From Amphritea atlantica (lineage in GTDB: Bacteria; Pseudomonadota; Gammaproteobacteria; Pseudomonadales; Balneatricaceae), in NCBI GenBank assembly GCA_024397875.1, contig CP073344.1, positions 1,479,001 through 1,543,000 of the forward strand: a stretch of DNA of 64,000 nucleotides. Reading direction: 5' to 3'. Below the pieces are notes generated by a model, which saw only the letters and a program-made list of their open reading frames with translations, was not told where the DNA came from and ran no database searches. Shown piece by piece: positions 35,639 through 36,669 of the stretch (positions within the stretch are counted from its first letter, which is position 1; each line of letters opens with the position of its first letter). Made by a program: the position numbers and the translations under genes.

Positions 35639-35665
35639 AAAACGCGCCTGTTTGGCGCGTTTTTT
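35639..35665 (+). terminator. rho-independent terminator after phnA
   Basis: ACGCGCC-TGTTT-GGCGCGT with A residues before and six T after. It abuts the 3' end of intI and may serve both convergent genes. Confidence 0.9.
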
Positions 35666-36623
35666 ATAGTAAGTCTAAAGGGCTGGATGTACCGGCATAG
35701 TGTTCTCCAATCACATGCGTGTAGATCTGAGTGGTTTTAACATCGCTGTGGCCTAAGAGCTCCTGTACGGTGCGGATATCTCTGCCAGCCTCTAGCAGGT
35801 GGGTAGCGAAAGAATGTCTGAAGGTATGGCAACTCACGCGTTTGAAGCGGATGTCGGTTTTAGCAACCGCTTGCTTTAACGCTTTTCGCGGTGCGGAATC
35901 ATGCAAGTGATGTCGGCATAACTGCCCGGAAAGTGGGTGCGAACACAAGTTGTTAGAGGGGAAAAGATACATTCATCCGGGTTGGCGAAAGGCGTTTGGG
36001 TATTTTCTATCGAGGGCAAATGGCAGAGAGGGACCTAAGCCCTGACGGTTGTCCTTCTGTTGAATGTTTATCGCTGCAGACATTTGAGCCTCTATCTCTG
36101 GAAATAGGTTGCGGCTTAAAATGGTTTGACGGTCTTTGCTTCCTTTCCCATCGCGTACCAATAACGCCCTGCGCTCAAAGCAAATATCCTGAAGTCGCAA
36201 CCGCAGGCACTCTGTAATACGCAGTCCGCTTCCATAAAGCAGTGAAAATATGAGTTTGTGATGACCTTCCATTTGGTTGAGAATTGAGCTGACCTCCGAC
36301 GGAGTTAACACTACAGGCAGCCTTCTGGGACGAGTAGCCTGGTTAAAGCCCAGCTCTCCTAATTCAATCTTAAGAATTTTGTGGTACAAAAAAGCTAAGG
36401 CGTTAAGTGCGGTTTTCTGAGTGTTAATAGAGACATTTTGTTGATTAGCCATCCAGGATAAAAAAAGTTTTACCTGCTCAGCTCCCATTTCAGCAGGGTG
36501 CTTTTTTTGATGAAATAAGATGAAACGTTTGATCCAAAAAAGATAGGTTTTTTCAGTTCGTATACTATAGCCACGTAATCGAATCTCTTTGCGAACCCGC
36601 TCTAGAAAAGGACTTTTAGGCAT
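35664..36623 (-). pseudogene. intI: integron integrase IntI interrupted by one in-frame TGA
   Basis: Tyrosine recombinase that inserts and excises gene cassettes. Ignoring one stop, the frame encodes 319 residues, the normal IntI length. Catalytic residues are all present: Arg in GSGLRITE, HxxR in HTFRHSFATH, His/Gly in LLGHSDVKTT and Tyr in IYTHV. The integrase-specific insert is visible (RKYPNAFRQPG...MYLFPS...HPLSGQLCRHHLHDS). The TGA at 35975-35973 (codon 217) falls where relatives have Trp (WxFLFPS), so a single TGG to TGA change explains it. ATG 36623 follows GGAGGTG. It would be inactive unless the stop is read through; a sequencing error is also possible. Confidence 0.9.
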
Positions 36624-36653
36624 AACGCACCTCCGTGTGAAAATTATGCATTT

Positions 36654-36669
36654 CTGTATGTATATACAG
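36654..36669. promoter_or_regulatory. LexA-binding site of intI promoter
   Basis: CTGTATGTATATACAG fits the LexA consensus (CTG-N10-CAG with an AT core). It lies 31-46 bases upstream of the intI ATG, where SOS control of integron integrases is known. It seems intact although intI is interrupted. Confidence 0.85.

What the first reader, a model, noticed from the sequence alone, without database searches (positions are those of the whole stretch)
35664..36669. SOS-controlled integron integrase disabled by a single Trp-to-stop change
The sequence shows an otherwise complete IntI frame with all catalytic residues and one TGA at codon 217 exactly where relatives have Trp before the LFPS motif. The LexA box and ribosome binding site are intact. 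This suggests very recent loss of integrase function that freezes the cassette array, or a stop that is sometimes read through.
Basis: partly seen in the sequence, partly recalled or inferred. Interest (0 to 1): 0.72.

Follow-up and report, generated by a model that had tools for sequence, protein, structure and literature searches.

The report
Broken integron integrase with intact backup
A marine bacterium's gene-collecting enzyme has one recent stop signal at a key DNA-reading residue, which is common in this gene family, but a second intact enzyme in the same genome could still reshuffle the collected genes, so they are probably not frozen.

Summary
Observation confirmed. The minus-strand frame 36623-35664 encodes an integron integrase (TIGR02249) interrupted only by TGA at codon 217; an RBS and a perfect LexA-type box are present. 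The position aligns with W219 of V. cholerae IntIA, a contact to the extrahelical G of folded attC sites. Orthologues at the same site in two same-genus genomes, and a 95%-identical database protein, have Trp there. Downstream codons remain conserved, so the change looks young. Such alleles are ordinary: nearly one third of intI genes are broken in a published survey, 12 of 33 loci here.
Most of its attC sites fold like those of array A, and one of its cassettes is 96% identical to one in a relative's A-type array. So capture at attI-A is probably lost, but array A is better called mobilisable in trans than frozen. Leaky UGA-A readthrough inserting the native Trp is possible but unproven; the one tRNA-Trp gene found is ordinary.

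The parts
35664..36623 (-). intI-A reading frame (319 codons plus stop) with one internal stop
35973..35975 (-). internal TGA, codon 217; relatives have Trp (aligned with W219 of 2A3V)
35976..36623 (-). 216-residue N-terminal product: SAM-like domain and first part of the catalytic domain
35664..35972 (-). C-terminal frame, 102 residues, starts with ATG directly after the TGA; carries the HxxR, H and Y motifs
36629..36634 (-). ribosome binding site GGAGGT
   Evidence: read by eye
36654..36669 (.). LexA-type box CTGT-N8-ACAG
36941..36947 (+). attI-A core GTTAGGT, assigned by eye; homology with two relatives ends at 36944, where the arrays begin to differ
37358..37416 (+). short, weak attC of cassette 1
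   Evidence: missed by the scan
37681..37769 (+). attC
38490..38557 (+). attC
38968..39050 (+). attC
39836..39906 (+). attC
45178..45304 (+). attC-like site that does not fold to the common form
36941..53500 (+). cassette array A and its decayed, IS-interrupted distal part; right border approximate (homology with relatives resumes at about 53498-54007)
41439..44927 (-). two 99.8% identical 1.24-kb copies of a transposase-bearing element (41439-42680 and 43686-44927) inside the array; element type judged by eye

Best explanation
This is a chromosomal integron (A) of an Amphritea species whose LexA-boxed integrase gene recently acquired a nonsense codon at the Trp that, in the V. cholerae enzyme, contacts the second extrahelical base of folded attC sites. 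Shown: the stop, the whole frame around it, intact orthologues, and a second intact integrase IntI-B with its own LexA box and array. Inferred: ribosomes stop at codon 217, the 216-residue product lacks the second half of the active site and is inactive, and capture at attI-A stops. Inferred: array A becomes a set of attC sites without its own integrase, from which SOS-induced IntI-B can still excise or shuffle cassettes by attC x attC recombination and pass them to its own attI. Rare UGA-A readthrough by tRNA-Trp may leave traces of normal IntI-A.
For: Single TGA, both halves whole. Trp aligns with W219 of 2A3V, a contact to G20''. Same-site orthologues G016 and G015 have Trp, as does P0001. 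Codons 218-319: 1 polarised nonsynonymous change against about 17 expected had the whole branch been neutral; upper bound on the neutral fraction 0.27. IntI-B: 347-residue frame, no stop, Trp present, box CTGTATATAAAAACAG. Bottom strands of four of six array-A attCs and six of seven array-B attCs fold to one architecture. One cassette, this genome's array B versus G015's array A, 95.7% over about 600 nt. Broken intI are common: nearly 1/3 in print; 12 of 33 loci here; an active class 1 integrase was costly and quickly inactivated in A. baylyi (passages).
Against: No functional data. IntI-A and IntI-B share 47% identity over residues 4-214 and their attI sequences look unrelated by eye, so IntI-B may act poorly on array A. 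Between arrays A and B of this genome only two short similarities were found (76 nt at 84%, 135 nt at 70%), no complete cassette. Low post-stop change is equally expected if readthrough keeps the gene useful. The tract was probably exchanged between species, so the branch used for dating is that of the tract, and unpolarised changes (1 nonsynonymous after the stop, 4 before) were left out of the counts.
Confidence: 0.68

Rival explanations
1. Plain loss: the array is frozen because IntI-A is dead and IntI-B does not act on it.
For: IntI-B is 47% identical to IntI-A over residues 4-214; attI-A and attI-B look unrelated by eye; no complete cassette shared between arrays A and B in this genome. 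In Xanthomonas, strains with the same broken intI usually have identical arrays (passage).
Against: Most attC sites of A and B fold alike; an A-type array and a B-type array of two species hold nearly the same cassette; mobilisation in trans is stated in the literature; IntI1 can recognise a foreign attI2 (passage).
Confidence: 0.2
2. Leaky gene: UGA-A is misread by ordinary tRNA-Trp, which puts back the native residue, so a useful amount of normal IntI-A is made, on top of SOS control.
For: The base after TGA is A; UGA followed by A is particularly prone to tRNA-Trp misreading in E. coli (PMC5289835 passage citing Engelberg-Kulka 1981); C-terminal codons still conserved.
Against: The UGA is in 1 of 3 same-site orthologues; conservation fits a recent stop; the single tRNA-Trp among the 70 tRNA genes covered has anticodon CCA and, read by eye, a 5-bp anticodon stem; leakage can be as low as 0.04%. 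On this evidence any leakage would be incidental, not selected.
Confidence: 0.07
3. Sequencing or assembly error; the gene is whole.
For: Single base-sized lesion in an otherwise perfect gene; reads not available.
Against: A 2-contig, 99.4% complete assembly; a random error would rarely make a stop in this gene (inference), while broken intI are common.
Confidence: 0.04
4. Two-piece integrase: the ATG directly after the TGA is used by reinitiating ribosomes and the two chains assemble.
For: TGAATG arrangement; 102-residue downstream frame with HxxR, H and Y.
Against: Met at 218 is also present in the two intact orthologues, so the ATG is not an adaptation; no well-spaced Shine-Dalgarno sequence by eye; the DNA-contacting Trp would be missing.
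Confidence: 0.01

Closest known systems
intI pseudogenes of chromosomal integrons (PMC2426708; Xanthomonas, PMC12444791; passages seen)
   Same: Integron integrase with attI and cassette array, broken by an internal stop, lineage-specific; more than one intI in a genome is also described.
   Different: Only one lesion, at the attC-reading Trp, and a second intact IntI in the same genome.
IntI2 of class 2 integrons (internal stop; codon 179 from the allele name in PMC3053210)
   Same: Otherwise whole integrase with one internal stop; suppression of the stop restores activity (passage).
   Different: That one is usually on mobile elements; this is a marine chromosomal integron with UGA at another codon.
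CALIN (attC arrays lacking an integrase)
   Same: After loss of IntI-A the array would depend on an integrase encoded elsewhere.
   Different: attI, LexA box and the integrase frame are still beside the array, so formally it is not a CALIN.
V. cholerae IntIA (2A3V)
   Same: Near full-length alignment, 283.7 bits, with the intact relative P0001; codon 217 = W219.
   Different: Intact, with a solved structure.

Membership tests
Integron integrase (TIGR02249) | Match to the family profile | tested here: met
   each half matches on its own, below the whole-protein cut-off; 409.6 bits against a cut-off of 265 when the search tool reads through the stop
Integron integrase (TIGR02249) | IntI-specific region between the Lys and HxxR motifs | tested here: met
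   the relative P0001 aligns to 2A3V through this region with small gaps only; the window protein differs from P0001 at 14 positions
Integron integrase (TIGR02249) | Unbroken frame | tested here: not met
   TGA at codon 217
Integron integrase (TIGR02249) | Recombinase activity | not testable with these tools
   -
Chromosomal integron | attI beside intI and an array of attC-bounded cassettes | tested here: met
Chromosomal integron | Same genomic site in relatives | tested here: met
   pqq genes, a peptidase, a phnA-like gene (names recalled from their sequences), then intI, in G016 and G015
SOS-controlled integrase | LexA box upstream of intI | tested here: met
SOS-controlled integrase | Induction by DNA damage through LexA | not testable with these tools
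intI pseudogene | Internal stop absent from close relatives | tested here: met
CALIN | Array with no integrase gene nearby | tested here: not met
   The integrase frame is adjacent, though broken
UGA readthrough gene | Stop conserved in relatives with a conserved downstream frame | tested here: not met
   The stop is in 1 of 3 same-site orthologues

The most novel reading that the evidence does not exclude
The UGA is a tolerated, leaky throttle: tRNA-Trp misreads UGA-A at a low rate and restores the exact residue that reads attC DNA, so SOS-induced IntI-A persists at a trickle while IntI-B does the bulk of cassette traffic, and the allele can be replaced by exchange of whole intI-attI modules between species.
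Probability: 0.06. Interest if true: 0.6.

Novelty: new member of a known kind. Interest (0 to 1): 0.3.

Why it matters
Integrase loss is usually read as the end of an integron's activity. A genome with one fresh nonsense integrase and one intact integrase, each beside an array of mostly like-folding attC sites, makes it possible to test whether a broken integron is really frozen or is served from elsewhere, and whether integrase modules are reset by exchange between species. The stop itself is an ordinary event in this gene family.

Tried and rejected
A strict attC pattern (R boxes RYYYAAC and GTTRRRY) gave almost nothing because the sites here use looser boxes. A looser scan with block-shuffled controls was used. 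Some of its hits are spurious: shuffles gave means of 0.75-1.6 and at most 5 sites, and the wrong strands gave 2 (array A) and 1 (array B). Of its 8 array-A hits I kept 5 and dropped 45785, 47791 and 48937; of its 9 array-B hits I kept 7 and dropped 18770 and 10037. Site 37358 was added by eye. Of the 13 folded, array-A 37358 and 45178 and array-B 21501 do not take the common form.

A second case of a single TGA (G042:C31) was the normal end of that gene. G036's gene is cut by an inserted repeat just after the equivalent Trp, not by a stop there. Selenocysteine was dropped: the only tRNA-Sec hit over the gathering score (47.2 against 47; 7 hits listed, 150 of 452 candidates scored) is a tRNA-Ser by ARAGORN. 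MiaE absence is inconclusive because no control genome rang. No relative was confirmed in viral contigs. Pfam named 3 of 10 array proteins (Sel1, GDSL, cupin) and PADLOC matched 1 of 10 (HNH); the two sets differ by one protein and do not cover the whole array. tRNA and Rfam scans of the window were empty. Structure prediction was not run: a solved relative exists. Paper searches listed no report of this locus (listings only; one search held one ballast-water paper). The protein search scored 7998 candidates and listed 120 of 7023 hits; may leave out records very near the window's genome.

Full report
What is there. On the minus strand, 36623-35664 reads as a 319-codon integron integrase with a single internal stop, TGA at 35973-35975, codon 217. 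NCBIfam TIGR02249 matches the two halves at profile positions 1-211 and 216-314 of 315; Pfam finds the N-terminal SAM-like domain and both parts of the catalytic domain. GGAGGT stands 5 nt before the ATG, and CTGTATGTATATACAG, a perfect CTGT-N8-ACAG, lies at 36654-36669. Among 11 intI loci checked, 9 have an exact box upstream. A simple sigma-70 scan found no consensus promoter for intI (one site on the other strand; shuffle mean 2.8), so the promoter itself is not shown. The genome is 4.55 Mb in 2 contigs, 99.4% complete. The search tool puts G016 in the same genus, and G016's contig has the same length (276,135) as that of Amphritea atlantica DSM 18887, so the host is taken as an Amphritea (marine, recalled). 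The species was not identified.

The residue. The intact relative P0001 aligns over nearly its whole length to 2A3V (named IntI4 in the PDB, VchIntIA in the paper), and position 217 falls on W219. Passages of PMC3053210 say that W219 is one of five residues of the attacking subunit that contact the extrahelical base G20'' of the folded attC. So the stop removes an attC-reading residue and everything after it, including the HxxR, H and Tyr motifs (roles recalled).

Relatives. Two orthologous integrons lie at the same site, after pqq genes, a peptidase and a phnA-like gene (names recalled): G016 (91% over 216 residues) and G015 (85%). Both have Trp at 217. P0001, an ENA-sourced protein on a 2,237-nt contig and probably metagenomic, is 95% identical over 216 residues and has Trp too; it differs from the window protein at 14 of 319 positions, the stop included. 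Of these four alleles only the window's has the stop.

Age. With G015 as outgroup, codons 218-319 show 1 polarised nonsynonymous change on the window's branch, against about 17 expected if the entire branch had been neutral; the 95% upper bound on the neutral fraction is 0.27. For codons 1-216 it is 8 against about 62, bound 0.23. Unpolarised nonsynonymous changes (1 and 4) were left out (all). A codon-level count gave 16 synonymous and 4 nonsynonymous for the window against 11.5 and 7.5 for G016, not different (p 0.29). Pairwise dN/dS is higher for this pair (0.16) than against G015 (0.04-0.05), but dS to G015 is near saturation. This is a rough parsimony estimate on few sites. It fits either a recent stop or continuing use of the downstream part.

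Is it unusual? In 54 genomes, this one included, one search lists 36 rows, which I merged to 33 intI loci (two rows each for G018, G036 and G054). 21 look whole and 12 are broken or fragmentary; some fragments may be cut by contig ends. G042:C31 is counted whole because its reported TGA is the terminal stop. Besides the window, one other otherwise whole gene has a single stop: G023, a TAA further on. PMC2426708 reports nearly one third of intI genes as pseudogenes and more than one intI in about one fifth of carriers; it also cites class 2 IntI2, whose activity returns when its internal stop is suppressed (passages). PMC3510236 reports that an active class 1 integrase is costly in Acinetobacter baylyi and is lost quickly by mutation (passages). 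So the event is ordinary.

The same genome has a second integron integrase at C1:2028005-2029048 (L001:9506-10549), a 347-residue frame without stop, with Trp in the equivalent motif and the box CTGTATATAAAAACAG. Its array runs the other way. IntI-A and IntI-B are 47% identical over residues 4-214. Bottom strands of attC sites were folded: four of six array-A sites and six of seven array-B sites form the same outer stem, small paired internal loop and inner stem; array-A 37358 and 45178 and array-B 21501 do not. One array-B cassette of this genome is 95.7% identical over about 600 nt, by eye one cassette length, to a cassette in the A-type array of G015. PMC12444791 states that arrays lacking an integrase can be mobilised in trans by a functional IntI (passage). 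Against this, attI-A and attI-B look unrelated by eye, and arrays A and B of this genome share only two short similarities. A foreign attI is not always a bar: IntI1 recognised attI2, though IntI2 did not recognise attI1 (passage). My reading is that capture at attI-A is lost while excision and shuffling in trans remain possible.

Readthrough. The base after TGA is A. A passage in PMC5289835, citing Engelberg-Kulka 1981, says UGA followed by A is particularly prone to misreading by tRNA-Trp in E. coli. That would insert the native residue. PMC9481147 measured UGA readthrough of 12% in E. coli but 0.08% and 0.04% in two Pseudomonas species (passage). One search lists 70 tRNA hits, with 150 of 188 candidates scored. 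ARAGORN on 29 loci that cover those 70 finds one tRNA-Trp, anticodon CCA, with a five-pair anticodon stem as I read it. There is no sign of a dedicated suppressor among these; unscored candidates were not examined. PMC13092985 (abstract only) describes four-pair anticodon-stem tRNA-Trp that reads UGA; this one is not of that kind.

Exchange of integrase modules. Between this genome and G016, dS is 0.22 for intI-A against 0.64 (phnA-like) and 1.05 (pqqE), and 0.067 for intI-B against 0.52 (clpP), 0.59 (clpX) and 0.87 (yebC). Fisher tests on four of these pairs (clpP not tested) give p from 7e-7 to 9e-26. Against G015 intI-A is as diverged as its neighbours (dS 1.64 versus 1.30 and 1.53), so constraint does not explain it. 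For intI-B the 95-97% identity runs from attI through the gene and, after a stretch present only in this genome, about 80 nt further, then falls to 85%. The simplest inference is recent exchange of intI-attI segments between species, which could replace a broken allele.

Verdict. New member of a known kind, of modest interest.

Noticed in passing
window 35201-36900 and L001:9251-10780: intI-A and intI-B with their attI are far more alike between this genome and G016 than the neighbouring genes are, which suggests exchange of integrase modules between species.
   Followed up: partly
L037:19028-19324: G015 has a second copy of the region between intI-A and the first cassette, about 12 kb into its array, with no integrase gene aligned beside it and no LexA-type box found in it.
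   Followed up: partly
window 41439-44927: Two 99.8% identical transposase-bearing copies flank a 291-aa frame with an HNH match.
   Followed up: partly
L001:8217-8819 (22717-23319 in the concatenated coordinates) and L037:12462-13063: A cassette 95.7% identical in a B-type array of one species and an A-type array of another.
   Followed up: partly
L001:3146-4393: Array-B protein with a tandemly repeated 13-residue unit (MEAMKPTAEMQRV); matching DNA self-repeats.
   Followed up: no
L043 and L141-L142: Relatives' integrases broken otherwise: G023 by TAA in the C-terminal part, G036 by an inserted repeat just after the equivalent Trp.
   Followed up: partly
window 45785-50400: Distal part of array A has degenerate attC-like remnants by eye, older looking than the proximal cassettes.
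   Followed up: no
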